Origin: Ditylenchus dipsaci
Lineage: Eukaryota > Nematoda > Chromadorea > Rhabditida > Anguinidae
Direction: 5' to 3'
DNA length: 64,000 nt
Assembly: GCA_004194705.1 (NCBI GenBank)
Contig: SADC01001036.1
Location: 186,001-250,000, forward strand
The translations under genes and the position numbers were made by a program. This document shows positions 5,293 to 62,995 of this stretch, in pieces (the first letter of the stretch is position 1; every line of letters starts with the position of its first letter). A model generated the notes under the pieces. The model had not been told where the DNA came from. It made no database searches and was given only the letters and a program-made list of their open reading frames with translations.

Positions 5293-6100
5293 GTGGGGCA
5301 AAACTTTTTTTTGTCACAGATTCACTTTTTTTGTACCAGATTCACTTTTTTCTGTCACAAATTTGATTTGTCACAGATTCACTTTTTTTTGTACCAGATT
5401 CACTTTTTTTTGTACCAAATTCACTTTTTTTCTGTCACAGATTTCCTCATTTCTGTCACAGATTCAGTTCTCGACACGAAATCAACAATTTTTAAAATTT
5501 TTTGTGTGAAATTCAGGGATGAGCAAAGACCAGGTGGCTGGAGACCCACTCCGGAATGGCCAAAAGGCCAAAATTTTTGGTTTTTTGTGGGTTTACTAAA
5601 GGGGAGTAAACTTTTTGAGAAAAATCGATTGAGCGGATCAGATTTCGGGTCCGATCGGCTTAATCACTCAGAATTCCAGGTTTATGCTGGTTTCGAGTGG
5701 TTCAGGGTGGAGTTGTGGGCGATTAAGCCGATCGGACCCGAAATCTGATCCGTTCAATCGGTTTTTCTCATAAAGTTTACTCCCTCTTTAGTAAACCACA
5801 AAAAACCAATAATTTTGGCCTTTTGGCCATTCCGGAGTGGGTCTCCAGCCACCTGGTCTTTGCTCACCCCTGAATTTCACACAAAAAATTTTAAAAATTG
5901 TTGATTTCGTGTCGAGAACTGAATCTGTGACAGAAATGAGGAAATCTGTGACAGAAAAAAGTGAATTTGGTACAAAAAAAAGTGAATCTGGTACAAAAAA
6001 AAGTGAATCTGTGACAAATCAAATCTGTGACAGAAAAAGTGAATCTGGTACAAAAAAAAGTGAATCTGTGACAAAAAAAGTATTGCCCCTTAAGTGCCGA
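5293..6100. repeat. Foldback with GGAGTAAACTTTTTG core and TCTGTGACA/TCTGGTACA tandem arms
   Basis: The two arms mirror each other around 5700. The outer 170 bp of each arm are about 20-bp tandem repeats of the type GAATCTGTGACAAAAAAAGT. The inner part carries TCCGGAATGGCCA, the word GGGGAGTAAACTTTTTGAG and ATTTCGGGTCCGATCGGCT. This inner core recurs at 17936-18265, 30237-31000 and 61935-62640, where the outer tandem repeats differ. Confidence 0.85.
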
Positions 6101-6675
6101 CATTAGAATGTCGTTATACGGGGATAAATATTTAGACATTGACATTTGCGGATGCAACATGTGAAGCCCGAAATTTTCAGACAGAAGACTGTTGACCCGA
6201 TATTGTGGCGCGATATTTCAAGTCCGATAAATATGGACGAAGTATTCACTTACTCAATAAAATTCTTTAAATAAGATGTTTTGGGACTTGAATAGTCTAG
6301 TCACATCAAGCAAAAAACGTCAAAATTGGAGTAAACCAGATAAAAAAGGTGTCGGGCCTTAGGTGGAAACGAACTTTAGAGGGTCTACTGTATTGAGACT
6401 CAACTGTGTTTTTTAATGAAAAGTTAACTGTTGCCAGCTTACTAATGAAGACTAAAAAATTTAAATTTCCCGCTTTGCATATGTTTCTAATTAGCTTATC
6501 TTATCTGCTACTCTCGAATGCCAAAGCTTAGGCCAATAATTGAAGTTTAAATTTTTTTGATTTTTATTGTCTAATCTCTATTTCTTTTTAATCCTCCTAT
6601 TATTGCGAAACAAAAGTTGAATTAATTGTAAATCAAACTTTTTTCCAACTAATTTTCTTAATTTTCAAGTCATAT

Positions 6676-6942
6676 TTACTTTAATAAAACTTTTTTGGCG
6701 TAAATACACTGGGTGTTCGGAAAGTTCTTATTTATTTTTCTCATCTCATTCCTGGCGCCTGCTGATAAGATATCTTTTTGTTGGTCATGTCTTTGATTGC
6801 CACTTGCTGGCAATGTAAACTTTGTTTGATCGGACACAGGTGCCCAATCCTTGCGGTCAATCACTCTATTGGGTTTATTTGCCAAAGTTGGGCTCTTTTT
6901 TGTTTGTATCGCTGACTCACTCACTTGTTCTTGTAATACCAT
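6676..6942 (-). CDS. Unrecognised ORF, possible exon
   Basis: An 88-codon open frame with fairly even amino-acid use and many charged residues; no family recognised. It starts at an ATG and ends at a stop, with no poly(A) signal or splice partner that I can support. It lies between hairpins, so it could be a chance frame. Confidence 0.2.
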   Translation of the reverse strand: MVLQEQVSESAIQTKKSPTLANKPNRVIDRKDWAPVSDQTKFTLPASGNQRHDQQKDILSAGARNEMRKINKNFPNTQCIYAKKVLLK

Positions 6943-7611
6943 ATTTATTTTATTTGAATTTTTTCAAACATTAAAAATCAGAAAATTTTATGTCGATTTT
7001 GAAATTTGCGGGTGTGAACTGGAATTCAAAAATAATAAGAATCGGTAGTACCGTGGTACAGTCGAAACTCGCCTCAAGTTTATTCGCGCCTGGGTCTGAC
7101 AACTTTTTCGCCTCTTTTTTTTTTCAAGTTTTTTCAAGTCTGATTCCGAAAATGGCAATGATTCCACTTTGGTTAGGTGTCGTTATATTGAGGTTTTGTT
7201 TTTTTGAATAGGAAAACAATTCATTTTGCAAAAAGCGATTGGCAAAATTGGAATACTTGCAATAATTGCGACCAGACAGTCAAAAAAGAACTGGCAAAAG
7301 CTTTTGAAAATAGAGGTGAAAAAAACCTTCGGAGCCTAAGAAGAAATGAACTTTTTGAGTGAGGGGGTCCTATATTTAAGTTCGACTTTAACCACTTTTT
7401 GTGAAAAAAGTGACAAATATTAAATTTAACGTAAAATTGGGCTTAATTGTTTTGCAAATGACAATTTCGCCAATGAGATCATTTCACTGGCTACAAACGA
7501 GTGGTAATTTTCATGACAAAAGAATTAAAGTACTTGAGAAAAGAAGCTATTGGCGAAAACATACCATTGTGTATAGAAGGTTGTTTTAGGCGGGATGTTA
7601 CAGATTATGTG

Positions 7612-8650: not shown

Positions 8651-8838
8651 ACTCCGCCAAAAAAATTCTTCTACGCGGTAGGCATAAAGAATAGGGATCA
8701 GAAACTTTTTCTTAGTACGAAATACTATAAAAAATATCTAAAAACAACAATTTGGGTCTATTTTTTTACTCGCGAAAAAAATGTAGGCCGATTTGTATTA
8801 ACTCTTACCCATTTGCAGTTATTTGCTACTACTGCTCA

Positions 8839-16141: not shown

Positions 16142-16312
16142 CAGTCAACTGCCGATTTAGTGTACACCCGATTTAGTGTACACCTCGGTCTAGTGTACAC
16201 CTGGATTAAATCATTTTGGCCGGCTGTTAATTAAAATGACTAGAATGAACACTCGATTTAGTGTACACCTGGAGCCGGTCCCCAGGGTGTACACTAAATC
16301 GGGAGTTGACTG
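16142..16312. mobile_element. Tc1/mariner-type MITE, CAGTCAACTSCCGATTTAG family
   Basis: Starts CAGTCAACTGCCGATTTAGT and ends CTAAATCGGGAGTTGACTG, flanked on both sides by TA. Several direct copies of GATTTAGTGTACACC lie just inside the left end. Two more copies, also TA-flanked, are at 39373-39557 and 49991-50177. TA target duplication and CAGTC ends are typical of the IS630/Tc1/mariner (pogo) superfamily. It has no transposase of its own. Confidence 0.88.
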
Positions 16313-17935: not shown

Positions 17936-18265
17936 ATTCTGAGCGATTAAGCCAATCGGACCCGAAATCTGATACACTCAATCGGTTTTTCTTCAAAAGT
18001 TTACTCCCCCTTTAGTATACCCCAAAAAACCAATTATTTTGGCCTTTTGGCCATTCCGGAGTGGGTCCTGGGCCATCTGGTCTTTGCCCACCTCTGAATT
18101 TCACACAAAAAAATTTAAAAATTGTAGATTTCGTGTCGAGAAACAAAACTGGGACATAAATGAGGAAATCTGAGACAAAAAAAGTGAGTCTGGGACAAAT
18201 CAAATCTGGGACAGAAAAAAGTGAATCTGGGTCAAAATAAAGTAAATCTGGGACAAAAAAGTTTT
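17936..18265. repeat. Single arm of the GGAGTAAACTTTTTG foldback family
   Basis: Contains the family core (CCGATTGGCTTAATCGCTC inverse, AAAGTTTACTCCCCCTTTAG, TGGCCATTCCGGAGTGGGTC) followed by about 20-bp tandem units of AATCTGGGACAAAAAAAGT. It matches the right arm of 5293-6100 but the left arm is absent, so this is a half element. Confidence 0.8.
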
Positions 18266-29069: not shown

Positions 29070-31235
29070 ACAATCAAAAAATCCGCGGATATTTATCCGC
29101 GGATACGGATAAATATCTGCGGATAAAATCCGTAGTAACAATCAAATATCCGCGGATAAAATCCGTGGATTTATCCGTATCTGCGGATGAATATCCGCGG
29201 ATATTTATCCACGGATAAAATCCGTAGTAACAATAAAATATCCACGGATATTTATCCGTATCCGCGGATATTATCCTCAGCCTGGTCGGGGGCAGGATAA
29301 ATCCGCGGATAAAAATATTTTTTATGCATTTTAAAATCGATTACTATCCAAAAACACTTGAATACGTTTGAATAGGTGTACTATACTACTAAAAAAAAGT
29401 TTTGTTTAAAAAGCAGTCTCTTAGTCGTACTTTTGCTGCATGAAATTTCTTTTTCAAAAATTTTTAAAAATAATTTTTTTATCGTTTTAGCACAGAGAAA
29501 ACGCTTAGCAATCATTAAAACAGTATTCCGAAATTAAATCTGAATCAGACAGTTATACTCTGGATTTTACATAAAACTTTGAAAAAGAACTTCTGCGATT
29601 TCTAAGTGTACAATTTTTTTTTGAGAAAAGTACTTTTTCCATCCCTGTGTTAAGGCGCGTCTCCAATGAGTGCAATGTAGAGTGCGATGTAAATTGCGAA
29701 AAATGGCTGTAGATTTTTTAATCGGCCGAACTTTTTTTTTCTGTTGTTACCATTTTGTAGCTGAGATGCAGGGCTACGCAATAAAAAAAATTTCAGCCAC
29801 ATATCGCTGAATTTTTTTTTGATAAAAATGCATTTATTTGCACTCTACATCGCACTCATTTAGTGAGAGTGCAAAAAACGCCTTTTTATCAAGACTTTTT
29901 CAGCGATATGTGGCTGGAAAAAATTTTTTTTGTAGCCCTGAATCTCAGCTACAAAATGGTACCAACAGAAAAGAAAGTTCGGTCAATAAAAAAATCTACA
30001 GCCGTTCCCGACTAAACAAATCGAAAAAAATCGCTCACTCATTGGGGACTTAGCTTTAGACTTATTGTAGAAATTATTAAATTTTTTGACAGATTTAAGA
30101 GAATACTTGTGCAAAATTATTCAAAAACATGGTGCGAAAAAGATTTATGCAATATTTTTCGACTGATTTTGTGAAATAACTCGTAAATAAATATGAATCA
30201 ATCATTTTCCTGCTTTAAGGGGAACATTAAAAATAGGGACGGTACTTTTTTCTGCCCCCAAATTACTTTTTTCTGCCCCCAAATTTTCAAAAAATGCCCC
30301 CAAATTTTTCTCTCTCATCGTTTTTAGTCATAATTTCGCGGGAATTTAAATTTTTCAGTCAAAAAGTAACTTGGATTGGTCAGAATCCCGCTCCGGAATG
30401 GCCAGAAGCCCCTGAAAATTGGTTTTTTGGGGGTTTGCTAAAGGGGGAGTAAACTTTTTGCGAAAATTCGATTGGGCGAATCAGATTTCGGGTCCGATCG
30501 GCTGAATCGCTCAGAATTTCACCCTGAACCATTCTCAACCATCTTAAAACGCCCTAAACCATCCCAAACTGCTCCAGACCAGTATCTAACTACCCTAAAT
30601 CAGTGCTTAGGGCGGTTTAAGATAGTTGAGAATGGTTCAGGGTGAAATTCTGAGCGATTCAGCCGATCGGACCCGAAATCTGATTCGCCCAATCGAATTT
30701 TCGCAAAAAGTTTACTCCCCCTTTAGTAAACCCCAAAAAACCAATTTGCAGGGGCTTCTGGCCATTCCGGAGCGGGATTCTGACCAATCCAAGTTACTTT
30801 TTGACTGAAAAATTTAAATTCCCGCGAAATTTTGACTAAAAACGATGAGAGAGAAAAATTTGGGGGGCATTTTTTGAAAATTTGGGGGCAGAAAAAAGTA
30901 ATTTGGGGGCAGAAAAAAGTAATTTGGGGGTAGAAAAAAGTAATTTGGGGGCAGAAAGAAGTAATTTGGGGGCAGCAAAAAGTACCGTCCTTAAAAAATA
31001 GTAGTTGGGTTTTTTTACGTTTAGTGGAAATAACCATGCTCATATTTATTCGCAGATTTTATCCACGGATAAATCCGTGGATATATCCGCGGATTTATCC
31101 TTAGCTGCGGATAAATCCGCGGATTTTATCCGTATCCGTGGATATTTCTATCCGTGATTGTTACTACGGGTTTTTATCCGCGGATATTTCTATCCACGGA
31201 TTTTATCCGTATCCGCGGATTTTATCCGTTGATCG
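29070..31235. repeat. Nested foldback: TATCCGCGGATA arms enclosing two others
   Basis: The outer arms (29070-29310 and 31050-31235) are tandem copies of ATCCGCGGATAAATATCC. Inside are a hairpin at 29650-30015 (TGCAATGTAGAGTGCGATGT against CACTCTACATCGCACTCA, and GTAGCCCTGAATCTCAGCTA) and, beside it, the foldback 30237-31000. Confidence 0.8.
30237..31000. repeat. Foldback with GGAGTAAACTTTTTG core and TTTGGGGGCAGAAAAAAGTAA arms
   Basis: Core words shared with 5293-6100: CTCCGGAATGGCCAGAAG, GGGGGAGTAAACTTTTTGCG, CAGATTTCGGGTCCGATCGG. The outer tandem units here are TTTGGGGGCAGAAAAAAGTA, unlike those of the other copies. Confidence 0.88.
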
Positions 31236-37400: not shown

Positions 37401-39760
37401 CATAGCTGTCCAAAAGCGTCATCACACTCGTCTGTTTGCTGTGGACAAGAAAGATCAGGTTGGCAAGGCCTACAACATACCTCCTGGCACCACTGTGGAT
37501 GTGGGTATCACACACCCCACTGAATTCGACTTCTACTTGTGCTCCCATGCTGGTATTCAGGCATGTTTTATTGAAGGACTTGAATGATAAATTATTAAAA
37601 ATATTTGATTTTCAGGGAACCTCACGACCCTCCCACTACCACATCCTCTGGGATGACAACAACTTGAGTGCCGATGAATTGCAACAGTTGACTTATCAAA
37701 TGTGCCATACGTTAGTTTTTCTTTTGATTAGAATCTATAATCTCACCATAGAGAGAGGCGCTGGGGAAATTTTTTGAGATAAGAGGCGCCAGCGCCAGGA
37801 GTCGCTCGACCCCGGCGCTGGGTCCTTTTCTCAAAAGAAGTCGGCGCCGGCGCTGGAACAACACTGGTGGTAACTTTCTGTTGTAGCCAAAAATCTATTT
37901 TTTGTCGCCGAAAAACTCTTTTCTATCGCCGATAATTTTTAAAACTTATTTTTAAATTTTCTTAACTTTTTTTACATTTTTCTTAAAGTTTTAACACTAT
38001 CAGGTAGCTCTGCGATTCTAGTTTCTAACGAGGTATCAGTTGTTGCATCATCTTTGCAAAATGTGCCACAAAAAAGTAAAAGTACGAACCAAATTATTTT
38101 TCTGACTTGCTCCCTGCTTTTAATTTTTTTTGTTGCACATTTTGCACCGATGATGCAACAACTGATACCTCGTTAAAAACTAGAATCGCAGGGCTACATG
38201 ATGGTGTTAAAACTTCAAGAAAAATGTGAACAAAAAGTTTATAAAATTAGATTTAAAAATTTCGGCGACAGAAAAGAGTTTTTCGGCGACAGAAAAGATT
38301 TTTTCGGCGACAATAAAAAGTTTTGTCCATTTAAAATTGGGTCGAAAACCCGATGCCATAAACACTTGTTTTGAATTTAAGGGGGAGGGTCTTATGAGAA
38401 GAAATACGGTGTGCGCTTTATTTCTGATCCTATATACCAAAAAGTCGATGGGAAAGCGAGTGTTGACTATGGACTGTTGTTTTAACTTTTTTGATCAAAA
38501 CCTAAAAAATATGTTTCAGATATGTTCGGTGCACTCGGTCAGTGTCCATCCCAGCGCCAGCCTACTATGCCCATTTGGTAGCTTTCCGAGCTCGGTACCA
38601 TCTTGTGGACCGAGAGCATGACAGGTAAGTCACATTCAACCTCCAAAATCAACACAGTCAAACCTCGATAGAATGAACCTTCGATATAACGAGCTTTTTT
38701 CAAAATTGTACCCTTGGCATAACGAAAACTTTTGTCTGACGAACTTTTTCTAAAAATGTTACAAAAGCCCCATTCATACTCCCGCGTGACACGGAACAAT
38801 TTTTCAAACACGTTTTGTCTGTTTATCGGCTCCCAGCCATTATTTTTCACTACTTTTAATAGATCTACAAGGGAACAGACCATGCTCTACAATATAGGGA
38901 TAACAGATTGGCCATGATCAGTATCGAAAACGGTTTTTAGGCTGCCCCGGAGGTCAATGTCCCGTGGGACAAATCCCTATATTTGTACCGCGGGACATTG
39001 ACCTGCGGGACAGCCTAAAAACCGTTTTCGATACTGGCCATGGCAAATCTGTTATCCCTATATTGTAGAGCATGGTCTGTTCCCTTATGGATCTATTAAA
39101 AGTAGTGAAAAATAATGGCTGGGAGCCGATATACAGACAAAAACATGTTTGAAAAATTGTTCCGTGTCCCGTGTCCCGCGGAGTATGAATGGGGCTAAAG
39201 AAAAGTGTTGACATAACGAAACTTTCTAAAGAAAAGGTATAAGAGGGCGACAATGAGAAAAAATAGGGCAATGACAATAGAAAGACATTTTTTCACTAGC
39301 ACTATTAGGCGAATGTAGTGAAACCTCGATGTAACCAACCCTTTATGTAGTTTTGGTTAAAATACCTCGATACAGTCAACTCTCGATTTAGTGTACACCG
39401 GATTTATTGTACACCTCGGTTTAGTGTACACCTGGATTAATTCATTTTGGCCGGCGGTTAATTATAATGACTAGAATGAACCCTCGATTTAGTGTACACT
39501 CGATTTAGTGTACACCTGGAGCCGGTCCCAGGGTGTACACTAAATCGGAGTTGACTGTATAACCAACCCTCGACACAGCGTACATTATTCCTGTCTCCCA
39601 AGGGGAACGTTATATATCAATTCGACTGTATTCAATCCACTCATTTTGCAGTGGTGAAGGCAGTCAGCCGTCAGGGACCAGCGAAGACACCACCCTCAGC
39701 AATATGGCCAGAGCAGTGCAAGTGCATCCAGATGCCAACAGTGTTATGTACTTCGCCTAG
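31438..39760 (+). CDS. Argonaute protein, ALG-1/ALG-2 (AGO) type
   Basis: Core of the miRNA silencing complex; cytoplasmic. Exons: 31438-31588, 31680-31842, 32206-32371, 32423-32723, 32772-32967, 33392-33430, 33498-33556, 33626-33697, 33752-33945, 34000-34072, 34120-34197, 34472-34603, 34659-34746, 34804-34876, 34933-35058, 35117-35222, 35279-35462, 35517-35835, 37147-37272, 37325-37560, 37616-37710, 38520-38624, 39652-39760, about 1064 residues. Order: Gln/Gly/Met-rich N-terminus (1-210), N domain from [11 protein letters not shown] (about 420-560), MID, PIWI. The slicer tetrad is visible: [27 protein letters not shown] and AYYAH. The C-terminus ends MYFA. Four single-base deletions break the frame: T run 31822-31825, TG run 35424-35436, GG 35548, TTT 37326-37328; filling them makes the whole divisible by three. 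Intron 37561-37615 has a GC donor. The start codon is not identified; the first in-frame Met is at 31550. Confidence 0.93.
35991..36062 (+). tRNA. tRNA-like sequence (anticodon GGC, Ala-like), possibly a pseudo-tRNA
   Basis: In an Argonaute intron. A D arm GTGTAATGGTAGCAC and a perfect T arm GCAGGTTTGATTCCTGC are clear, with an anticodon arm TCAGCCCGGCAAACTGA whose 7-base loop would place GGC at 34-36. Position 33 is C rather than U, and the acceptor stem pairs only 5 of 7 (GGGGGCG with CACCACC), or 6 of 7 if it starts three bases earlier. A decayed tRNA or a SINE head is as likely as a working gene. Confidence 0.45.
36273..36706. mobile_element. Tc1/mariner-type MITE, CAGTCGAACCTCTATATAAC
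   Basis: Left end CAGTCGAACCTCTATATAAC, right end ATAGAGAGGTTCGACTG, flanked by TA. Many copies of TTATGTTATATAGAGG lie inside near both ends. It sits in the 1.3-kb Argonaute intron. No coding sequence. Confidence 0.88.
36720..37015. repeat. Hairpin in Argonaute intron
   Basis: CATGGTGTAGCTAAGATTC (36750) mirrors TAGCTACACCATGACATC (36945). Contains the AGCTA...GATTCA motif seen in other hairpins of the window. Confidence 0.7.
37880..38330. repeat. Foldback in Argonaute intron, TCGGCGACAGAAAAGA arms
   Basis: Arms of TTTTCGGCGACAGAAAAGA units (right, 38258-38320) mirror TCTTTTCTATCGCCGA (left, 37910). The core holds TAGTTTCTAACGAGGTATCA against TGATACCTCGTTAAAAACTA. The same core with other arms is at 42060-42520. 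Confidence 0.82.
38762..39200. repeat. Near-perfect hairpin with about 210-bp arms, in Argonaute intron
   Basis: CCCCATTCATACTCCCGCG (38768) mirrors CGCGGAGTATGAATGGGGC (39177); ACCATGCTCTACAATATAGG mirrors CCTATATTGTAGAGCATGGT. The loop is only about 15-30 bases. It lies within a CAGTCAAACCTCGAT element that starts at 38655. Confidence 0.85.
39373..39557. mobile_element. Tc1/mariner-type MITE, second CAGTCAACTCTCGATTTAG copy
   Basis: Ends CAGTCAACTCTCGATTTAGT and CTAAATCGGAGTTGACTG with TA on both sides; interior matches 16142-16312 closely (ATTTTGGCCGGCGGTTAATT). It lies in the last Argonaute intron. Confidence 0.9.
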
Positions 39761-46659: not shown

Positions 46660-46777
46660 ACACGGACAAATCATCCACAGGACAATTCATCCCCAGGGAC
46701 AATTCATCCCCCGGGAGGATTTATCCCTCGGGACAATTCATCCCCCGGGACAATTCATCCCCAGAACAATGATATAA

Positions 46778-47640: not shown

Positions 47641-49990
47641 CTCAAGCCAGTTTTTCTGTATTTTATTTGTCCCGAACGGAATATTTTCAAGCAAAAACTT
47701 TTTCTCCCGTTTTCATTCAACCCCAGTTCTAAAGTACTTTCGCACTCCATGGGGGATGCAAATAGTGGCTCTAGGTGAATTGAACCTCTACAAATTGAAC
47801 CCCGGTAAATTGACCCTCCGGTAAATTGAACCTCCGGTAAATTGAACCTCGGTAAATTGAACCTCAAAATTTGTCTTGAGAGGATTTTTTATTCAAAAGA
47901 TATTTAACGCTTGTGTCATATGCATCCCTACCACCAGCCTTGAGCATGGGCTGTATAATAAAGGGAAAGGAATATTGAAAGGCCACTTGATCCATCTTAT
48001 TCAACCTTAATGGTCCAGATCCACTCTCAGTTATTCAGATCAACTCTCAATGATCCAGAACCACCCTCAGTGGTTCAAGTCCACCTCAAATGGTCCAGAT
48101 TGACCCTAATGGGTCCTTATACACTTTCACCAGTCCAGATCCACTACAGATAGTTTAGATCCATCCTCAGTGGTCTTGATTTAACCGGGACGTGAAAAAT
48201 CTTTTGGGTGTCCTCTTGGTCCATTTGGGTGCCGAGTAAACAAAAATGCAGTCAACCCTCTCAGTTATAAAATTTTTAAATTATTCATTTTTTGTCATGT
48301 GAAGAGCTCTTATAATTTAAATTGTCTTTCTATAATCCAACCTCAGTTCTACTGGATGATCCATGCACCAACTAAACCAAGTGGTCGTCCACTTGGACCA
48401 AAATCTTTTAAAATTTTTCGGGTTCCAAAACCTGTTTTCTGGACTAATTCGGGCATGCTGAAGATGGTTTGATAATAATAAAACTAGGTTTCGTATGGTA
48501 TTTTTTAAGCTTTGGTAAAATCGAGTTTTGGTGAAACTAATTATTGCCCAAAACTCAAAAAATAACCCGACAAAACTGCATTTTACTACTATCAAACCAT
48601 CTTAAGCATGCCGGAATTAGTCCAGAAAATAGGTTTTGGAACGTGAAAAACGAAAATTTTTTTGATCCAAGTGGACGACCACTTGGTTTTGCAGCACCCA
48701 GGTAGTCGTACCCAGATTGGGGAACTCAGGTAGTGTAGTGGTACCCGGGTAGTAATATTAGTAATAAAGTGCTTTTATATGATCCAACCTCAGTTCTACT
48801 GGATAATCCATGCACTAACTAAACCAAGTGGTCGTCCACTTGAATCAAAATTTTTTTTGTTTTTCGTGTTCTAAAACCTATTTTCTGGACTATTTCGAGC
48901 ATGCTAAACATGGTTTCATAGTAGCAAAATGCAGTTTTGTCGGGTATTTTTTGATTTTTGGGAAATAATTGGTTTTACCAAAACTCGATTGTAGCAAAAC
49001 TCAAAAATACCCGAGAAAACGGCATTTTACCACTATCAGACCATCTTCAGCATGCCCGAATCAGTCCAGCAAACAGGTTTTGGATTCCGAAAAAGTTAAA
49101 AAAAATTTTGATCAAGTGAACGACCACTTGGTTTGGTCGGTTCAGACTAAAAAATTTAAATTCCTGCAAATTTTTTACTGAAAGTGAGAGTCAAAAAAGT
49201 CAATGGGTACACTGAGAGTGCGAGTGCCAGCTGCATATTACCGCGTGGATACCCTAAGGGATAGGAAACTACTCCAGAACTGGGGTTACTGCAAGCCAAA
49301 TCGCTGTTTTAGAATGATCAAACCGTGCTCAGGACACGATTCTGGATAGGGTACAATGATCTTTAGCTACTTTCGGCTAAATCCAAAATTTCGGATACTG
49401 GAGGTGGATACCCATTTAGGGAATGTGGTACCAGTGTGATTACATTACTCGCCGTGAGAATAGGTGATCTTTTAAATAACAGTTTATGGCTCTTACTCAA
49501 AAAAAGTAATGTCTGCTACCACCGGGATTTGAACCTGTAACCTCAAAAATTTGGAGGTGGAATTCACCAGGGGAGAGTTCACCGGACGGAGGATTTACCG
49601 CAGTGGAATATACGGACTCCCTTGAAACACGGTGACCTGGCAACGAGAATGGAAAAAAAATATCTCTTGAATAAAAAAAAATCCTCTCAAGACAAATTTT
49701 GAGGTTCAATTTACCGGAGGTTCAATTTACCGGAGGGTCAATTTACCGGGGTTCAATTTGTAGAGGTTCAATTTACCGCCGCCCGCAAATAGTAGTATAG
49801 ACCATACTTGGACACGCAAAAAAAAGAGCGGCGGCGGCGAGCGGCGGGCTGCCAGAAGAACAGCGGCGGAAAAAGCGGCGGCGGCGGAAGCGCCAAAAAG
49901 CAGCGGCGGGGAAAAAATACCAGCGGCAGCGGCAGCAGCGGGTCAAAAAATGAGCGGCGGCGGCAGCGGCGTGTAAAAAAATCTCATTTA

Positions 49991-50177
49991 CAGTCAACTC
50001 CCGATTTAGTGTACACCGGATTTATTGTACACCTCGGTTTAGTGTAGACCAGGATTAAATAATTTTGGCCGGCGGTTAATTAAAATGACTAGAATGAACC
50101 CTCGATTTAGTGTACATTCAATTTAGTGTGCACCTGGAGCCGGTCCGCAGGGTGTACACTAAATCGGGAGTTGACTG
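49991..50177. mobile_element. Tc1/mariner-type MITE, third CAGTCAACTCCCGATTTAG copy
   Basis: Ends CAGTCAACTCCCGATTTAGT and CTAAATCGGGAGTTGACTG, TA on both sides. It sits between the GCGGCGG arm and the small ORF inside the nested palindrome. Confidence 0.9.
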
Positions 50178-50271
50178 TATTGAATTTTTGTAACTTTAAG
50201 TCATCGACAATTTTTATGACAATACACTTGAAAACTTAATCAACTGTTTATCTACTGTGATAGTGTGAGTA

Positions 50272-50498
50272 ATGCATAAAGAAGAACGGTGGATATCTAC
50301 ATTCGTGAACCGGTTCCCAAGGCTTTGGGCTCAACGTTAAGTGCAAACGCGAAAAATGCTGCTTCTGAATTCATTCAGGAAGTAACCTCCACACGCTCAC
50401 TACGCTTCACTAGTGCCGAAATCAGCGGGATTGCAGAAGAAGTCGTGGACATGTACCTACAAGAAACGCGCAAAGATTTGCGTGAAAGAAATCAATAA
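50272..50498 (+). CDS. Small unrecognised ORF inside nested palindrome
   Basis: From codon 7 on, the frame to the TAA at 50496 looks coding: no low complexity, balanced charge, amphipathic-helix-like end (EISGIAEEVVDMYLQETRK). ATG 50272 is in another frame; one extra G at 50288-50289 would join it in frame (MHKEER then VDIYIREPVPK), giving about 75 residues. This is the same kind of homopolymer loss as in the collagen and Argonaute genes. AATAAA overlaps the stop (50494). I recognise no family. It could be a 3' exon, a captured fragment or a small gene. Confidence 0.4.
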
Positions 50499-50555
50499 AA
50501 AGACAATTTAAGCCTCCTCTTCTGCAATCTAAGTGTTTTGTTATTTTGTAACGCA

Positions 50556-51234
50556 GAAAAAATGGGCAGGAGTAAGATGCGGCAAATCATATTGCGACAA
50601 ATCAAATTGCGGCAAAATCAGATTGCGGCAAATCAGATTGCGACAATTCAAATTGCGGCAAAATGAAATTGCGGCAAAATCAAATTGCGGCAATTCAAAT
50701 TGCGGCAAAATCAAATTGCGGCATAAGTGGGAGGGTCACATTGGGCTGCTATTTGGGTTGATCGTTATTTTATACGTTAGGTATTTTCGTTCACTTTGTG
50801 AGTAAATATTTGTATATCATTTTTTGTTGAATTTAGTAGATTTAGTAGAGCAATTATAGTGCTGGTCAAGATTCGACACTTTTGCTGTCAAACAACACAT
50901 TATGCTGTTTGATTGTTTGCTGATTTTTGTACAGCTAGTCAATTTTTGGGTTCTAGCAAAATCTCATCTCACAAACAAGCCTGTTTAGACGGCAGCTTAT
51001 TGAGACCACATAGTGGTGGCAGATTAAGCATTACTTGAAAGTTTCAAATTTGATTACCGCAATTTAAATTGTCGCAATATGATTTGCCGCAATTTGATTT
51101 TGCCGCAATTTGAATTGTCGGAATTTCATTTTGCCGCAATTTGAATTGTCGCAATCTGATTTGCCGCAATCTGATTTTGCCGCAATTTGATTTGTCGCAA
51201 TGTGATTTGCCGCATCTTACTCCTGCCCGAAAAA
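50556..51234. repeat. Foldback with AAATTGCGGCAAAATC tandem arms
   Basis: Left end GGGCAGGAGTAAGATGCGGC, right end GCCGCATCTTACTCCTGCCC. The left arm is about twelve units like AAATTGCGGCAAAATC, the right arm its inverse. The 300-bp centre is unique AT-rich DNA with no ORF I trust. Confidence 0.85.
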
Positions 51235-52269
51235 ATAAATAAAAACGAATTTCGAAGGTTCAAACAAGCGGCGGAGGCAGCGGCAGCTAAAAAATGCAGC
51301 GGTGAACGGCGTGGCAAGCGGCGCCGCTCGTCCAAGTATGGTATAGACTTGTTAGCACCAATAAAGTGGTACTCAGGTGGTAGTACCAGGGCATTGACCA
51401 GCTATAGGTATTCAAGCCCCTTATCCAATTAGCAAATTTTCCTTTCACTCTAACTTGCGCTCTCACTCTCAGTGTGTACCCAATGGAAAATAAATCGCTT
51501 CTCAGTCTTACTTTCACTCTCACTTTCAGTGTACCCAATGAATCTTTTTCACTCTCACTTCAAGTGAAAATTTCATGGGGATTTAAATTTTTCAGTCTGA
51601 ACCAACCAAACCTAGTGGTCGTCCTCTGGGAAAAAATTGAATCTTTTACTTTTGCAAATTCCAGAATCTGTTTTCTTAACTAATTCAGGCATGCAGAAGA
51701 TGGTTTGATAGTGGTAATGGCGTTAAATGCCGTTTTTAGGGTATTTCTTGAGTTTTGGTAAAATTAAGTTTTGGCGAAATCAATTATCGTACATTACTAA
51801 AAAAATACCATACGAAACCTAGTTTTATTATTATCAAACCATCTTCAGCATGCCCGAATTAGTCCAGAAAAGAAGCAGTGGAACATGAAAAACGTGAAAA
51901 AAAATTTGATCCAAGTGGACGACCACTTGGTTTAGTTGGTGCATGGATTATCCAGTGAAATCGAAGTTGGATCCCAGAACAACATTTAAAATTTTAAAAG
52001 TTCATTACGAGACCAAAATATTACTACTTGGGTACCACTACACTACCTCAGTTCTCCAACCTATGTACAACAAATCAACTGTGGCCGAGAAGATTGTGGC
52101 CTCGGGAATATTGCGGCGCGGGGATATTGTGTCCGTATCTGTTCTGGGGATGAATTCTCCCAGGGGATGAATTGTCCCGGGGATGAATTGTCCTGGGGAT
52201 GAATTGTCGCGCACCCCAAAAAATAATACGAAAAATTGGAAAACTTAAAAGGAATACACCTCAAACTAT

Positions 52270-52345: not shown

Positions 52346-52513
52346 TTAGTGATTTTCTTGCACAACCCCATTAAACAGCACTTCTCCAGCATCAGTAACA
52401 AGGAAATAGGCAAATGGATGATCGGCAGTAAAGTAAACATAATCAGGTCGAGCAGACATGGCCCGAATCATCACAGCAGTAGCAGCAGCGGCTTCAGTTC
52501 CCTCCTCGTTAGT
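52346..52513 (-). CDS. Serpin exon 11b: reactive loop with predicted P1 Met
   Basis: Phase-0 exon after TTTTCAG, 55 residues. The hinge [11 protein letters not shown] is the textbook inhibitory form. Counting Gly325 as P15 puts Met339 at P1 and Ser340 at P1', the same pair as in alpha-1-antitrypsin, which suggests an elastase or chymotrypsin-like target. It continues [11 protein letters not shown] and ends [11 protein letters not shown]. It has its own poly(A) signal. Confidence 0.88.
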   Translation of the reverse strand, partial: TNEEGTEAAAATAVMIRAMSARPDYVYFTADHPFAYFLVTDAGEVLFNGVVQENH

Positions 52514-55500
52514 CTGAAAATAGTAAGATTATCGCCACCCGAAAAAAGAAAAAACTAAAGACAGACTGCGACCCACAAAATGAAGTTAATGCAGGGATGA
52601 TATCTCAAAATTTTGAAAAAAAGTACATTTTCCAAAAAAAAAAGATTTTGGGGTCAAAAAAAAGTACAATTCCCGAAACTCAATAAAAGCGCCTTCAAAC
52701 TTTTTATTTCTACACCAATAAAACCCATAACACTTTTCAAACAAATAAAACAATTCAATCATATTTCTGTTACTATAGACATATGAAATATAAATTAACT
52801 CATACAAAATTTTTGTATGACTTTTGGTATTTTGTATCTTTTCCGCACCATAAGGTCGTGTCAAAAGTTCGGGCCGTTTTTTTCACAAGCGATGTTTGTG
52901 GTATTGTGTTATTACCTTAGACTTTCATACATTTTTTTAATGTTTACCACTCATTTTGTAGCCAAGATTTTGAGCTGCAAAATGAGTGGTAAACTTTTGA
53001 TAAATTGATGAAAATCCAAAAAAAAAACGTAGTGCCACAAATATTGCTTGTAATTAAATCAGTACGGATTTTTCGCCACGTCCCAATATTAGGTTGTTCG
53101 GAAAGTTCGCGGAATTTTGTAATGATCCCTATTGTGTTTTTAGCGTTTTGGTTTTCGAGTTTTCTTGCAATTCTGTTGCATTTAAACCGCTTCTTTTTGT
53201 TGTTTTTTTATGTCGAATGAGATTTTCATCCATATGAAATCGATCAAATCAGAACGGTTTTAAAGCAACAACGTTGCAAAAAAAATCGAAAACCAAAACA
53301 CTAAAAACACTAAGGGGGACCGTTACGAAACTCCGCGAACTTTCCGAACAACCTAATATTTAGATTTGCAGCTTTTTCTATTTAGAAATTTAGTTGATCA
53401 CACTTTTCGAACTATTGATATCAAAGTAGAAACTCATAAGGCAGCTGAAGACAGCAATACGCAGAATTCAGCTCGCAGTTTTCAAAGAAATATCTCGCCG
53501 ACTCAGAAAAGTGGGAAAAGAATCAGGCAGGACCTAAAAGCTTTTTAGGCTCAGCAAAATTCGAATTAAAAACTGTGCAGCAGGCGAAATTTTTTAAAAA
53601 TTCGAATGTTTTCTTACATTTTCGGGGCCTATTCGAAAAAAAAAGTACAAAAAAGTACATTTCTCTAAAAAAAGTACAAATCTTTTTAAAAAGTACATTG
53701 AAAAAAGAAAAGATTTGGAGTCCCAAAAAAAGTACAAATCTTTTTAAAAAGTACATATATCATCCCTGAGTTAATGCCATTTTATTAAATAATGATATTC
53801 CCACAACTTAGTCATTCAGAATAGAATTGACTACGAAAACACAAATTCATTGATAGTAAGCACCCGAGAACAAAATATTTGAGTTTTCCTTGGTCGATTC
53901 ATTATTTGACCCACCATCAACATTCACTACAAATAAAAGAAATGGATGGTCAGCGTTAAAATGTGCTGGCTGCCTTGCTTTCTTAAAAGTTATGTGAGCT
54001 GATGTGGCTCCCGCAGCTTCAGTACCTTTTTCATTAACCTAGGATATTCTCTGTATTTTCAAAATAGTGCATGGCATTTTTCAGTACAAATTTTGCAAAA
54101 AGTGACTTCGAAATAACTACAAAATTTACCTCAATGAACGCCTTCTGCAGAATTTCACTTATTTGGAGACCACCAGAGCCAGAAACCCCATTGAAATTGG
54201 CAGATGAGCTAACTGAACGCTGAAGCCCGAGATTTTTGAGAATAGGTGCCAACGTGTGAGTGCTTTCCAACTTGAACTTTGGCAAGATCACCTAAAACGA
54301 CCATTAAATTAAATAATAATGTGAGTTGGATCAAAGTCACTCACCCTGACTTCCCTCTTTTGTCGTTGCTGAACTAGACCTAGCAAGCTCTGGCCGGTGA
54401 GATTCTTCAACACATTTTCAAGTCCGTATCGCTCCTTAGGCAGGACCACAAACATGAACACCTCATTATTTTTGTAGGGAAGACCAAGCAATTGCATCTC
54501 ACCGTTGTCGGAGTACACGAAGCTGGAGGTCTTTTGCATCATATCCACCTAAGTAACTCAGGTATTATGCATCGTTGAACATTTATTAATGATAGATCTA
54601 ACCTGTTTCTCGGTTCCCTCAGAAACATAGAAAGCCTTCTTAGTGGTAAGCTTTGGATCAAATTGCACAGCCCATGTTCCTTTGAAATAGATGGCATTGA
54701 TTAGCACCATCCTGAAAACAGTATTCAAAAAGTTTATTGAAAAATAAATTGCGACTACCTAGTCATGCCACTGAGGCTGCCAGCTTCGATTAGATCGTGG
54801 ATCTTCCTGCAAAAATTATTTTAGCAAAACAAAAATGTTCTTACAGGACAGCAAAAAATTCAATAATTAAACCAAGACTGCGTCCAGAATGTTTCCCTGT
54901 GTCTTACGAAAAAAAACTGACCCGTGAGTCGCATTCACCACAAATTCGTTGATTTTCTAAAATTTTCTTTGATAAAAATGACCTTAGCAAACAGTGGGCT
55001 ATAGCCATAGCTATCTCTGAAACATTTTTAAACTCCACAATACAGAAAGTAGGCAGAAATATCAAAGGATAAGCCAAGCCACACTCTTACATAAACAAAC
55101 TCTCACGTTTGCAGCTGCTTGGCTCTGCGAGAAATCCACTGATTCGAATTGTCCTTGGTAGTGATTATTGAGCAGTTTCTGGGAAGAAGAATACTTAGAG
55201 CAAAATTTCAGTGAACAAATGTTTTCACCTTGTACTCCTCCAGTATGGGATAGTCCTCTTTCACCTTAAAATTCACTTATATCAGTCAAACGTTAAAACG
55301 TTCAAAACGTTCCACAATTTACTCACATAGATACGGTTGGCAGCCTCCAAAGTGTAGTTCTTCTCTGACTTAGCAATCTTCTGAAGCATCATTCCAAAAA
55401 ATTTGTGCACCTCCTCTTTGGGCTGTCCATTGGCCAGTAGTTTGTTGAGTTCAGCCTCGGTTTCATCACGCGCTCCAGCATAGGCCATGGAGAGAGCAAT

Positions 55501-55729
55501 CGCCACAGACAATGGCGAGAGAACGACTGAGGCCTGAAAACGAAATAAAAATTAGCCATCTCAAATTTGAACGCTAAAATTCCAAACACTCGCCTTAGAG
55601 TTTGTCGTCGATTGGCGCAGCAGATTCCTGGAACAAATAATTCCTTTTCAGATGCAGACATAACTTGAAAACATACAGTCCAAAGTCAGTTTGGGCCTCC
55701 AAAATCAAGGCATTGGAATTAGAAGTCAT
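52346..55729 (-). CDS. Intracellular-type serpin with alternative last exons
   Basis: Serine or cysteine protease inhibitor with no signal peptide ([18 protein letters not shown]), like nematode SRP proteins, so probably intracellular. Exons (minus): 55729-55677, 55627-55594, 55533-55327, 55264-55229, 55178-55107, 54956-54922, 54806-54759, 54711-54603, 54548-54345, 54291-54130, then either 54038-53847 (11a, 383 residues in all) or 52513-52346 (11b, 375 residues). Serpin marks: [43 protein letters not shown], hinge GTEAA..T, and ADHPF. All joins keep frame; no indel seen. Intron 2 (55593-55534) has a GC donor (AAG|GCGAGT). Confidence 0.93.
52586..53765. repeat. Foldback between the two serpin loop exons, AAAAAGTACA arms
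   Basis: Left arm 52600-52690 (AAAAAGTACATTTTCC, AAGATTTTGGGGTC) and right arm 53640-53765 (TTTTTAAAAAGTACA, AAGATTTGGAGTCC): the same words in direct rather than mirror order. Treat the symmetry as uncertain. It encloses the mariner-like MITE below and sits between exons 11a and 11b. Confidence 0.5.
53091..53354. mobile_element. Mariner-like MITE, TTAGGTTGTTCGGAAAGTT ends
   Basis: TTAGGTTGTTCGGAAAGTTC at the left mirrors GAACTTTCCGAACAACCTAA at the right, with TA at the edges. Ends of this form (TTAGGTTG...) are typical of mariner elements. The 265-bp interior is AT-rich and has no transposase. The related word GTGTTCGGAAAGTTC is at 6713. Confidence 0.85.
53781..53786 (-). terminator. Poly(A) signal for serpin exon 11a
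   Basis: AATAAA on the minus strand, 61 nt beyond the exon 11a stop, so the proximal loop exon can end a transcript by itself. Confidence 0.55.
53847..54038 (-). CDS. Serpin exon 11a: reactive loop with predicted P1 Lys
   Basis: Phase-0 exon of 63 residues. Hinge [11 protein letters not shown] is inhibitory in form. With Gly325 as P15, Lys339 is P1 and Lys340 P1' (ITFKKARQP), which suggests a trypsin-like target. It continues [13 protein letters not shown], and has an insert ([13 protein letters not shown]) and a shortened end ILFSGAYYQ. Confidence 0.88.
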   Translation of the reverse strand, partial: VNEKGTEAAGATSAHITFKKARQPAHFNADHPFLLFVVNVDGGSNNESTKENSNILFSGAYYQ

Positions 55730-58236: not shown

Positions 58237-58627
58237 TGCAGCAGCTTGGTAAATCGACACTTCTGAAGGCAGCCTGAAAATATCAAGGTGAAATAAAGCA
58301 TAAAACCACACTCTCCGCAATACATAGCATAACACATTCTGAGTAAAGATTCTTGCATGAAACAGGTGCAATAAAAAGTTTCAATTAGGATCCAAAACTG
58401 TACTCAAAAATAAATTAAGCACCGAATAAAGCAAAATAAAATTAAACAACTATGATGCGCCGCACTCCAGATGAAAAATCGCCTCACTCAGAATGAAAGA
58501 GCGCGGGAGTGCGGCTCCAAAAAAGTGTCGCCTGATTGTGTACACGCTGGCGCCGCACCACGGGAGTGAAGATTTGCGCGGAAGCGCGGAGTGCGGAGGT
58601 GCGGCTCCCATTGGGTTCCTAGCTTTA

Positions 58628-59040
58628 CTGTAAAAATTTAGAAAACTAAAAAATATATCTCGAGTATATGTCAGAATTATTCGAGCCTTTATCAGTTCTT
58701 CATTAATACCCACTCTTCTTCCTTCCACACGCATTGTCATTATGGAAAATATTCTTTCAGCAGCACCAGACGAAGCCGGAATTATCAAAATATCGATCGC
58801 TAACTTTTTTATCGGTCCATTTCGCTGAATTTTCTGTTGTTTTAGAGAAAGTCAGTGTCTTGAACTCGTTTGTTTGAAACGGGGTTTTCTGTAACCAGCC
58901 TCTCGAACGCAGCGATGCAATACATCTTCTACGAGGTCATTGGTAGATTCTGATCTTAAAGGGACATTAACTGTCCCTAAGCCGAATGGTGGTGTGATTT
59001 CTGTTAGGACAAGCGTATCACTAAATTGTGATTCTCTGAG
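58628..59040 (-). pseudogene. hAT transposase C-terminal remnant
   Basis: Minus-strand frame with one internal stop (TGA 58854-58852). The end carries the hAT dimerisation motif: IIPASSGAAERIFS, then RRVGINEELIKARIIL. Upstream, 62 codons (ITPPFGLGTVNVP, LVEDVLHRCVREAG) are open but not recognised as hAT, and may be another gene's fragment. The frame runs into the palindrome arm near 58625 without a stop. Confidence 0.75.
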
Positions 59041-60197: not shown

Positions 60198-61499
60198 TTG
60201 ACTCAGAAACTCATTTTTTGAGTTATGATTTTTTGAAGTTTATGGTCAGGCACTCGAAAATCTTCGATTAAAAATGAAAATAACCCCAATTCCCAAATTT
60301 CTCTCCAGGTCTTTTTCCGCTGAGCATAAAAATATGTTATTGTTTACTTCTTAACAGACAAAGAATTGTTGACTTGGAGACAGCCTCCTCTTTCCCCCTC
60401 CTCCTCTCAGTAACAAATAGTTGTTTTCAGTTCAAAAAATTAAAACCCACAACAAAATAGAATTGAAAAATATCCGCAACAGGCGATGTTTTGCACAATC
60501 TATTTGTAGTATTGCTTCTATTGCCTGGTGTGCAATCCAGAAAAAATGACTGTTCTAATTTGTTTATGTGAAGAAATCTGAGACACACATAGCAAAAAAT
60601 GCTGCTTGGTAAACATGAATCAGTGTTCGTTGTGTTTATGTGCCTTTTTGGGGGGAAATTAGCACTGTCTGCAATAATGGGAAGAGCAATAAATTAAAAA
60701 TAAATATTTATATCAAAAAATAAATTCAGCTTATGAAATCGCCGAAAATTGGTTAAAAGAGGCGGTGATCATTTTGTTTGTATTTGAATGATAATGGGTC
60801 ATTATTTTTGTGTGCAGAACACATCTAAAAGTCCGTAGGTTTTAAACCGGTGACTGGTAAATAGTTTAAAAAATGTAAAATTTAGTTACAACGATATCTA
60901 CTACCAGGGTTGTGGAATTGGTTCATCGATATCTTGTAGCATGAATTCAGCTCAATCACTGAAAAACTACGGTTTACATTCAGAGAGATTCGAACCAGCA
61001 ACCTCCGAAAGTGGTTTTATTTGAATTCAAACTTTTTTGATGTGGGACCACATACGGACAAGAGATACACTCCCCCTTTCAAATAAAGATTTGTTTCCAA
61101 TTAGAATTCATTTGTATTTACCATGATTTTTCTTGTTAGTTTATGGCCCGTTCACGTACTTGGAATTCGGATCTTCGTAACAATTTTTTTCTTTTAGTCA
61201 AAGAGGCATATATTTTTCTAAAGTTATAAATCGATTAGGTGACCTTGCAATTTAGCTTCTGTTGAGGTACCATTTGTCAAAGGCGCAGTCACAATGAAGA
61301 GAGAGGCTGTTTGCGGATGCTAAAACAGAATACTCACTAAGAATCACGGAAATAGAATACTCGCTTCTTTACCTTTGCGCCCAAAATTATTCAGTTGCTA
61401 CACTTTTTTAGTTTCCAGTTGCTTATGTAGTATCATGTATCTCAGGTCTAGGGTAGACTTGTGTTTGTGAGTTACAAAAAAATTAATTTGAAAATTTTT

Positions 61500-61700
61500 G
61501 CGGGGAAATATGGTTGTGAAAATGCTCGAGCAGATTGATTTAGAGCATATGCTCGAGCATTTGCGTTTTTTTCGAGCATTTTCGAGCATATGCTCGACAT
61601 ATTTGAGCCGTTATCTGTGGCCGTACAATTTAGTTAACTGTACAGTTTAACTGAATTCTCTTTCGAGGGTTGACTGTAAGCCAAGCATGCTCGAAATTCA
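61500..61700. repeat. Cluster of ATGCTCGAGCAT palindromes
   Basis: Words AGCATATGCTCGAGCAT and TTCGAGCATATGCTCG recur; ATGCTCGAGCAGATTG (61522) mirrors CAATCTGCTCGAG (61700). Confidence 0.65.
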
Positions 61701-61839
61701 CCAATCTGCTCGAGAATATAGGGTCATTACTGTGATCATGGTGGTTAAGGTGATCATGTCAACCATAATCACATTAACCACCACGATCGTCTTAATCGTC
61801 ATGATCACATTAAAAACCAACATTAAAAACCAACTTGCA

Positions 61840-62995
61840 TTTACCCGGTATTTACCCGAAAGGCGGGTAAAATCTTTTTATTTCCATAACCAACTTTTAT
61901 TCGAGATATCATAACAAATCAATCAAATTAAGGCTCAAATTGAAAACACCCGTCAAAATATGTAAATCTCCCGTCAAATTTATTTTTTATCCCGTCAAAT
62001 TCAAATTTCAAACAAATTATGTGAATCTCCCGTCAAAATATGTAAATCTCCCGTCAAATTTAAATTTTTAGTAAAATACTGCATTAAATTTCGTGGGAAT
62101 TCAAATTTTCTAGTCAGAAAATGGATTGCTCAGAATCCCACCCCGGAATGGCCAGAAGCCCCTGAAAGTTGGTTTTTTGGGGTTTGCTAAAGGGGGAGTA
62201 AACTTTTTGCGAAAATTCGATTGAGCGGATCAGATTTCCAGTCAGATGCGCTAAATCGCTCAGAATTTCACCCTGAACCACTCAAAACCACCAAGAACCT
62301 GGAATTCTTAACGCTTTAGCGCATCTGACTGGAAATCTGATCCGCTCAATCGAATTTTCGCAAAAAGTTTACTCCCCCTTTAGTAAACCCCCAAAAAACT
62401 AACTTTCAGGGCTTCTGGCCATTCCGGGGTGGATTCTGAGCAATCCAAGTTATTTTCTGACTAGAAAATTTGAATTCCCACGAAATTTAATGCAGTATTT
62501 TACTAAAAATTTAAATTTGACGGGAGATTTACATATTTTGACGGGAGATTCACATAATTTGTTTGAAATTTGAATTTGACGGGGTAAAAAATAAATTTGA
62601 CGGGAGATTTACATATTTTGACGGGTGTTTTCACTTATAGCCATCAAATTAATGCATAAACAAAATCATCGTTAACAGTGTTAATTTCCTCGATTTCTTC
62701 AATTTCGCTAATTGCTAATCCCTAATTTCGAAATTTCGAAAGAAACGCTGAAAACTAAAAAGTGCAGTGAAATGCATAAAAATTGTTATGCTAAGACTAA
62801 AACACTTTCTGGCTTCTGAATTCGCTTTGAGACAAATCAAATTAAAACAAAAATTTTGTAAAAATATAGTAATTTCGCAAAATCCTTAGTAAAGATTTTA
62901 CCCGATTTCTATACTACGGGTAAAATCTCTGGGTATTTACCGGTAAATACGGGTATTTACCCGGTAAATACCTGGGTATTTACCCATTGTCCAAC
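61840..62995. repeat. Nested foldback: ATTTACCCGG arms around GGAGTAAACTTTTTG element
   Basis: Outer arms: TATTTACCCG repeats at 61845-61870 and 62895-62990. Inner element 61935-62640: arms of TTGACGGGAGATTTACATAT units and the family core (CCGGAATGGCCAGAAGCC, GGGGGAGTAAACTTTTTGCG). Here the usual CGGGTCCGATCGGCT is replaced by CAGTCAGATGCGCTAAA. Confidence 0.85.

What the first reader, a model, noticed from the sequence alone, without database searches (positions are those of the whole stretch)
5293..62640. Modular foldback elements: same core, interchangeable tandem-repeat arms
Four elements (5293-6100, 17936-18265, 30237-31000, 61935-62640) share a core with CCGGAATGGCCA, GGAGTAAACTTTTTG and a CCGATCGGCT block, yet their outer arms are unrelated tandem units (GAATCTGTGACA, AATCTGGGACA, TTTGGGGGCAGAAAAAAGTA, TTGACGGGAGATTTACAT). 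In one copy the inner CCGATCGGCT block is also replaced. The parts seem to evolve or exchange as modules, while each element keeps its two arms matched, which implies a process that copies one arm onto the other.
Basis: partly seen in the sequence, partly recalled or inferred. Interest (0 to 1): 0.85.

Follow-up and report, generated by a model that had tools for sequence, protein, structure and literature searches.

The report
Foldback transposons with interchangeable recognition words
These are small hairpin-like jumping genes, relatives of the known Mutator/Foldback transposons of plant-parasitic nematodes, that share one core and one repeat skeleton but carry different short sequence words, the same word in both arms, so they let one watch how a transposon family changes what is probably its recognition signal.

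Summary
E2 is half an element, so it has no matched arms.

In the relatives read, the arms are not unrelated modules. Most share a skeleton (words at 21, 21, 16 bp; pyrimidine-ACTTTTTT spacers) in which a 7-10 bp word differs between families. Both arms carry the same word family (48 of 48 elements readable in both arms; 45 of 45 junction pairs among listed sites).

Arm copying shows at the founding of families. In four families left and right consensus differ at 0 of 187-189 sites, while families differ at 7-53. After amplification the arms mutate mostly independently: 130 of 139 private substitutions are one-sided. Tips of families A and F stay asymmetric. In some copies the interior is inverted relative to the tips, which points to arm-arm recombination.

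Target duplications (9 bp, exact in 20 of 30) and GG tips suggest non-autonomous Mutator elements of Tm1/Phantom type. The same genome (very probably Ditylenchus dipsaci) holds FLYWCH-MULE transposons whose ends are inverted arrays of lineage-specific words. Words as transposase sites is inferred. No transposase-bearing partner with 21-bp arms was found.

The parts
5296..6088 (.). E1: complete palindromic element, word family A (GTCACAGATT / GTACCAGATT), tips GGGCAAAAC and GGGCAATAC, flanking duplication CTTTAAGTG / CTTAAGTG (one base lost, so not an exact 9-bp duplication)
5305..5467 (+). E1 left arm: 8 words at steps of 20-22 bp with one 16-bp step after the third
5468..5918 (.). E1 flank and core (TTCTCGACACG ... 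CGTGTCGAGAA) with CCGGAATGGCCA and CCGATCGGCT in both halves, GGAGTAAACTTTTTG exact in the left half, and an asymmetric loop
5919..6079 (-). E1 right arm, same words in inverse orientation
17936..18265 (-). E2: half-element (one core half and one arm), words GTCCCAGATT and one-base variants; second half absent
30237..30990 (.). E3: complete palindromic element, word family E (GCCCCCAAAT), tips GGACGGTAC at both ends, unequal numbers of words in the two arms; no exact 9-bp duplication (3 mismatches)
61932..62642 (.). E4: complete palindromic element, word family F (CCCGTCAAA), inner block replaced in both halves, asymmetric tips GGCTCAAAT / GGCTATAAG; a 10-bp duplication ATCAAATTAA read directly from the sequence (not a 9-bp one)
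37872..38322 (.). Further palindrome in the window whose 21-bp unit (AACTCTTTTCTGTCGCCGAAA on one strand) looks like the same skeleton with the word GTCGCCG; it has none of the three E1-E4 core motifs
   Evidence: unit compared by eye

Best explanation
The elements are non-autonomous foldback transposons of the Mutator superfamily (Tm1/Phantom type) in a tylenchid nematode genome. Each arm is a helically spaced series of short words, most likely binding sites for a transposase (inferred), separated by AT-rich spacers that are similar in most families. Families differ in the word, which is the same at nearly all sites of both arms. A new family starts from one master copy whose two arms have been made identical by recombination or gene conversion between the inverted arms, or by re-forming the palindrome from one half. 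That master is then copied whole, and the arms of the daughter copies drift mostly independently. Shown in the sample: shared core and skeleton, matched words, symmetric founders in four families, mainly one-sided decay, mosaics and half-recombinants, interior flips relative to the tips, 9-bp target duplications. Inferred: that the words are transposase sites, that a word change switches or follows a transposase, and that conversion rather than re-forming the palindrome is the copying step.
For: Target duplications of 9 bp: exact in 20 and within one mismatch in 23 of 30 elements with both tips found, out of 46 examined. Word steps: 509 of 510 fall in 19-23, 14-17 or 35-43 bp in seven word families. 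Spacer consensus is C/T-ACTTTTTT-C/T-T in families A-E (D from one half-element) and close to it in G. Same word family in both arms: 48 of 48 elements readable in both arms, of 54. Exact inner junctions (all 40 A sites, 100 listed of 129 B sites) give 15 A/A, 30 B/B and 0 A/B pairs; a one-base subfamily marker agrees in 28 of 30. Consensus left against right: 0 of 187, 188, 189 and 187 in A, B, F and E; between these families 7-53 substitutions. Private substitutions: one-sided 35, 29, 36, 30; two-sided 1, 2, 0, 6 (A, B, F, E). Tips asymmetric in A (7 of 7) and F (8 of 8) where both were found; interior orientation against tips 7:1 in A and 4:3 in F. Recombinants: L010 arm with words C-B-C; L020 and L025 with an E/F-type core segment in one half only. 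The same genome gives 115 MULE-domain matches. Of the 20 best MULE loci, 18 have inverted word arrays on both sides of the transposase domain; two loci tested have a FLYWCH domain; of 17 examined, 6 have an exact 9-bp duplication next to GG tips and 6 more one with one mismatch.
Against: No transposase-bearing element with the 21-bp arms was found: the arrays that flank the MULE genes read have 14-17 bp words. The one long A-arm element that could be partly read carries a hAT-like gene, taken as nested. In the G family (3 elements) left and right consensus differ at 28 of 173 sites and 24 private substitutions are two-sided against 19 one-sided. Shared variants are one-sided 91 times but two-sided 21 times in A, B, F and E. 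F lacks the 16-bp step (it has 38), and F and H have other spacers. E2's word is not supported as a family. A small within-element excess of similarity in A, B and E could mean some copying after insertion. None of E1, E3 and E4 has an exact 9-bp duplication. All elements were drawn as best matches to the query cores, not at random.
Confidence: 0.68

Rival explanations
1. Plain descent: word families are old separate lineages copied whole from master palindromes, and similar skeletons reflect functional constraint. Cores look shared only because they are conserved; no exchange or copying is needed beyond the first palindrome.
For: Copies within a family decay mostly independently. Each flank/core type goes with its own set of words in the sample.
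Against: The 7 A-B and 17-18 E-F consensus substitutions are present in both halves while left = right within each family; independent substitution in two arms is not expected to do that. Recombinant halves L020, L025 and mosaic L010 exist. The A word is found on an E2-type core.
Confidence: 0.15
2. Whole-arm exchange: old arm types with their own words were recombined onto a younger shared core at the arm/flank junction, then symmetrised. There was no stepwise word replacement.
For: A and B differ at 7 of 188 flank and core sites but at most word positions; the last word ends within a few bases of the same flank start in A, B and C. Galileo has copies with both TIRs of one subfamily and the interior of another (PMC3573991, passages read).
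Against: Spacers and step order are shared between most word families; close word pairs (CCGACTA/CCGCCTA, GCCCCCA/GCCCCCT, and among MULE elements GACAAAACACCGCC/GACATTTCACCGCC) look stepwise; no left-right hybrid was seen.
Confidence: 0.4
3. The elements are moved by a hAT or Rehavkus-type transposase rather than a MULE.
For: A hAT-like gene lies between two A-type junctions at C1286. Rehavkus is listed with 9-bp duplications and TIRs of 26-400 bp (PMC6446971, passages read).
Against: hAT duplications are 8 bp (recalled), here 9. Four of the five other 97-99% copies of that hAT gene lie on contigs fully covered by the list of exact A signatures and none is near one; the fifth was not covered. 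Rehavkus transposase was not searched for.
Confidence: 0.15
4. Assembly artefact: collapsed or duplicated haplotypes create matched arms and repeats.
For: Three duplicate insertions were found and dropped (L008, L015, L079).
Against: Elements lie on many contigs with different flanks and own target duplications; left and right arms differ by private substitutions.
Confidence: 0.02

Closest known systems
Tm1 Mutator/Foldback family of root-knot nematodes (PMC3169594; parts 1-2 of 8 and passages read)
   Same: Composite inverted repeats made of tandem short units, asymmetric outer motifs, GG start (motif GGA), 9-bp target duplications, many MITE-like copies, FLYWCH-MULE transposase in the autonomous copy; nematode hosts of the plant-parasitic kind.
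   Different: One unit of 13-15 bp in Tm1; here seven word families with matched arms, mostly on a 21/16-bp skeleton, sharing a palindromic core, with word change between families. The transposase partner of the 21-bp arms is unknown.
Galileo of Drosophila (PMC3573991, PMC3688188; passages read)
   Same: Long repetitive inverted repeats, chimeric copies, sequence exchange between subfamilies, transposase sites shown within TIR tandem repeats.
   Different: P superfamily with 7-bp duplications and long units; here 9-bp duplications and short helically spaced words.
VANDAL/VANC system of Arabidopsis (PMC5735166 and PMC6446971; passages read)
   Same: Mutator-type elements with family-specific short words in tandem, recognised by a fast-evolving element-encoded protein (shown there).
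   Different: VANDALs lack TIRs or have short degenerate ones, and the words recruit an anti-silencing protein; here the binder is unknown and the word sits in palindromic non-autonomous elements.
Drosophila Foldback-type element Tetris (PMC4079207, listing and start of abstract only)
   Same: Foldback anatomy with tandem repeats in the arms.
   Different: No membership test made; different host.

Membership tests
Mutator superfamily (MULE), non-autonomous | Target site duplication of 8-11 bp | tested here: met
   9 bp exact in 20 of 30, at most one mismatch in 23 of 30, of 46 examined
Mutator superfamily (MULE), non-autonomous | Ends shared with, or mobilised by, a MULE-transposase element | tested here: inconclusive
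   MULE elements of the same genome share GG tips, word-array arms and 9-bp duplications but have 14-17 bp words; no MULE gene within 21-bp arms was found in the loci read, and mobilisation cannot be tested
Tm1 Mutator/Foldback | Composite TIR of short tandem units with asymmetric tips | tested here: inconclusive
   Arrays at 21/16-bp steps; asymmetric tips in A and F. B and E were searched with one tip form only; 12 of 16 and 3 of 7 have it at both ends
Tm1 Mutator/Foldback | Unit of 13-15 bp related to CGATTCAGTATCCGC and motif D | tested here: not met
   Units are about 21 bp with other words
hAT, non-autonomous | 8-bp target duplication (recalled) | tested here: not met
   Nine-base duplications exact in 20 of 30
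Rehavkus | Rehavkus transposase (PHD finger) within the same ends | not tested
   No search made; a 9-bp duplication alone does not separate it from MULEs (PMC6446971)
Galileo / P superfamily | 7-8 bp duplication | tested here: not met
   9-bp duplications
Galileo / P superfamily | THAP-domain transposase | not tested
   No search made

The most novel reading that the evidence does not exclude
Find-and-replace of a recognition word: on a retained core, spacer sequence and 21-21-16 register, a 7-10 bp word is exchanged at about 12-16 sites in both arms in few steps, tracking the changed DNA specificity of a transposase, so that non-autonomous palindromes can switch transposase. Each switch is fixed by equalising the two arms through inter-arm recombination that spares the tips.
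Probability: 0.3. Interest if true: 0.78.

Novelty: new variant of a known kind. Interest (0 to 1): 0.55.

Why it matters
How a multi-site recognition signal can change at all sites at once is an open problem for transposons, satellites and regulatory arrays. Here many copies in one genome (289 exact sites of one arm signature alone) show which step is symmetric (the founding of a family) and which mostly is not (decay), and give mosaics and recombinants caught between states. It may also account for part of the repeat fraction reported for this nematode group (D. dipsaci 55.7% repeats, 10.3% in DNA elements: PMC11118728, passages read).

Tried and rejected
The C1286 gene as autonomous partner of the A arms: it is hAT-like by eye (frame read; no Pfam match above cut-off). 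Its 97-98% copies on C20, C136, C256 and C297 have no exact A-arm signature near them in the list, which covers contigs up to C367; the copy on C1295 is not covered. I take it as a nested insertion. C182:53233-56307, two A signatures 3.05 kb apart, shows no MULE or FLYWCH match among the 150 candidates scored in each search and was not read. L039/L051: an E4-type palindrome beside a MULE is a separate element. Six further one-sided MULE flanks of 781 bp: L093 and L097 have 14-16 bp word arrays, L095 the edge of a 17-bp one, L092 and L094 no clear array, and L096 a 21-bp array that by its orientation belongs to a neighbouring element. E2's word as a concerted family: not supported. Searches put two G-word elements (L060, L090) among E and F; redid the comparison with families assigned by word and three duplicate insertions dropped, and the left-right figures come. 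A grouping of 21-bp arrays by shared 8-mers collapsed nearly everything through the AT-rich spacers and was dropped; a second grouping by GC-rich 7-mers (369 arrays, 66 clusters) is too rough to count families. I did not run a phylogenetic tree test of core against arm; the module table and consensus counts stand in for it.
Full report
1. What is in the window. E1 (5296-6088), E3 (30237-30990) and E4 (61932-62642) are full palindromes; E2 (17936-18265) is one half only. The window lies in a genome of 226,978,389 bases in 1359 contigs. One MULE reading frame of the genome matches Ditylenchus dipsaci entries best, at 55-64%, and another locus matches one of these entries at 100% over 98 residues; the published D. 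dipsaci size is 227.2 Mb (PMC11118728, passages). I take the genome to be D. dipsaci or a very close relative; this is an inference.

2. Sample. Four searches with the cores of E1, E3, E4 and E2 each scored 40 of 1809-2924 first-look candidates. Thirty, 20 and 20 loci were read from the first three (some are the two halves of one element) and none from the fourth. In the held sequence 123 half-elements were found, forming 54 elements and 15 unpaired halves; three duplicate insertions were later dropped. The sample is biased to close relatives of the query cores.

3. Anatomy. Arms are series of words. Steps between words are 19-23 bp (413), 14-17 bp (71), 35-43 bp (25, one word missing) and other (1), of 510. 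The three outermost steps are long-long-short in 13 of 18 A arms, 28 of 32 B arms, 1 of 4 C arms, 4 of 14 E arms and 6 of 6 G arms; in H not in this form, and in F the short step is replaced by a gap of about 38 bp. Word families: A GTCACAGATT with GTACCAGATT in a fixed order, B CCGACTAA, C CCGCCTAA, D GTCCCAGATT (E2 only), E GCCCCCAAAT, F CCCGTCAAA, G ACCGCAA, H GCCCCCTAAT. Spacers are nearly the same in A-E and G and different in F and H. The steps are close to whole and half turns of the helix, which suggests phased protein binding (inference). In A the order a-b-a, short step, a-b-b-a-a is the same in both arms where both are complete (L001, L007, L026, allowing one-base variants).

4. Matched arms. 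Of 54 elements, 48 have at least two recognisable words in each arm, and all 48 have the same main word family in both (one of them, L010, has a mixed arm); six have one arm with fewer than two words. Exact inner junctions of A (all 40 sites) and B (100 listed of 129) give 45 inverted pairs: 15 A/A, 30 B/B, no A/B. The one-base marker that splits B into two subfamilies agrees between the arms in 28 of 30 pairs. The A short-step signature has 289 exact sites, 100 of them listed; 36 plus-strand entries pair inward with a minus-strand one within 4 kb and none outward; one array-rich locus, C195, supplies six of the 36.

5. When are arms copied? In families A (9 elements), B (16), F (12) and E (7) the consensus of left and right halves (flank plus core) differs at 0 of 187, 188, 189 and 187 sites, while families differ by 7 (A-B), 17-18 (E-F) and 45-53 (A or B against E or F). 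Substitutions that define families are therefore in both halves. Within these families 130 of 139 private substitutions are in one half only, shared variants are one-sided 91 times and two-sided 21 times, and a half's nearest relative is its own partner in 11 of 88 cases (6 ties). Against this: the mean left-right distance within an element is slightly smaller than under random pairing in A, B and E (P 0.047, <0.0002, 0.004), not in F (0.22), which may be subfamily structure or some later copying; and G (3 elements) is not symmetric (28 of 173; private substitutions 19 one-sided, 24 two-sided). So equalisation belongs mainly to the founding of families, not to each copy.

6. How are they copied? 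In A and F the outermost 8-9 bp are not equalised: A has GGGCAAAAC at one end and GGGCAATAC at the other in 7 of 7 elements with both tips found, F has GGCTCAAAT and a GGCTATAAG-type tip in 8 of 8. With a looser tip pattern one A element of nine (L005) had equal tips. B and E were searched with a single tip form, which 12 of 16 and 3 of 7 carry at both ends, so their symmetry was not tested as strictly. The asymmetric loop lies in one orientation relative to the tips in seven A elements and the other in one; in F the split is 4:3 (five further F elements lacked a readable tip). Inversion of the interior is what crossing over between inverted arms yields, so arm-arm recombination is the likeliest copying step; re-forming a palindrome from one half is not excluded but would be expected to equalise the tips too.

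7. Exchange. L020 and L025 carry, in one half only, the core segment typical of E/F elements on a B-type flank. L010 has words C-B-C within one arm and L013 one C among B words. Of three E2-search hits read, C1161 has an E2-type core (10 differences to E2, 18-20 to the A and B consensus) but the A word at its inner site, C349 has the A word on a core slightly nearer to B (9) than to A (12), and C1265 has the B word on a B core (4). These show recombination between families and partial independence of word and core. Whether whole arms were exchanged or words were replaced stepwise on a resident skeleton is not settled.

8. Which transposon is it? Nine-base target duplications and GG tips fit Mutator elements; 8-bp hAT duplications (recalled) do not fit. 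The genome gives 115 MULE-domain and 144 FLYWCH matches, 150 candidates scored in each search. Of the 20 best MULE loci, 18 have inverted arrays of 14-17 bp words on both sides, one word per lineage. MULE domains that are 96% identical (L047, L049) carry words differing by three bases, GACAAAACACCGCC and GACATTTCACCGCC; nine same-word pairs are at least 89% identical. Two loci tested encode a FLYWCH domain upstream of the MULE domain. This is the anatomy of Tm1 (PMC3169594). In Galileo the tandem repeats of long TIRs contain transposase sites (PMC3688188, passages), and in VANDAL elements short tandem words are bound by a co-evolving protein (PMC5735166, passages). By analogy the words here are binding sites; this was not tested.

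9. Novelty. The kind is known: Mutator/Foldback elements with tandem-unit arms. Searches for prior descriptions (listings and starts of abstracts, with passages of six papers) showed me no account of word families sharing one core and skeleton, or of founder-level symmetrisation with spared tips; these searches cover only the held open library. I file it as a new variant of a known kind.

Noticed in passing
window 46664-52208: Inverted arrays of GGACAATTCATCCCC words 5.5 kb apart enclose further inverted arrays (47774 and 49701, GGTAAATTGAACCTCC) and a palindrome with TGCGGCAAATCAAAT words: nested word-array elements with 15-17 bp steps; 32 MULE proteins gave no match in the window.
   Followed up: partly
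window 16152-16206, 39385-39515, 50003-50056: Dispersed short arrays of a 16-17 bp unit GATTTAGTGTACACC recur in the window.
   Followed up: no
window 32191-32724 and 37111-37584, + strand: Argonaute gene pieces: an N-terminal domain match just under its cut-off and a PIWI domain match.
   Followed up: partly
window 52349-55551, - strand: Serpin exons, with a second C-terminal serpin exon at 52349-52528 suggesting a tandem gene.
   Followed up: partly
window 42688-43290, - strand: Collagen gene (Pfam collagen repeats); a cuticle collagen by look (recalled).
   Followed up: no
window 58453-58851, - strand: Remnant of a hAT transposase C-terminal dimerisation region.
   Followed up: no
L101 (C1286:368480-368980): A hAT-like gene with 97-99% identical copies elsewhere sits between two A-type junctions 2.57 kb apart, apparently a nested insertion.
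   Followed up: partly
G000 C195:98731-99622 and C283:72075-72486: Runs of the A short-step signature at 37/58-bp and 77-79-bp intervals: arms that seem to have expanded into satellite-like arrays.
   Followed up: no
L027:1906-3181: Family C arm expanded to about 66 copies of the 21-bp unit.
   Followed up: no
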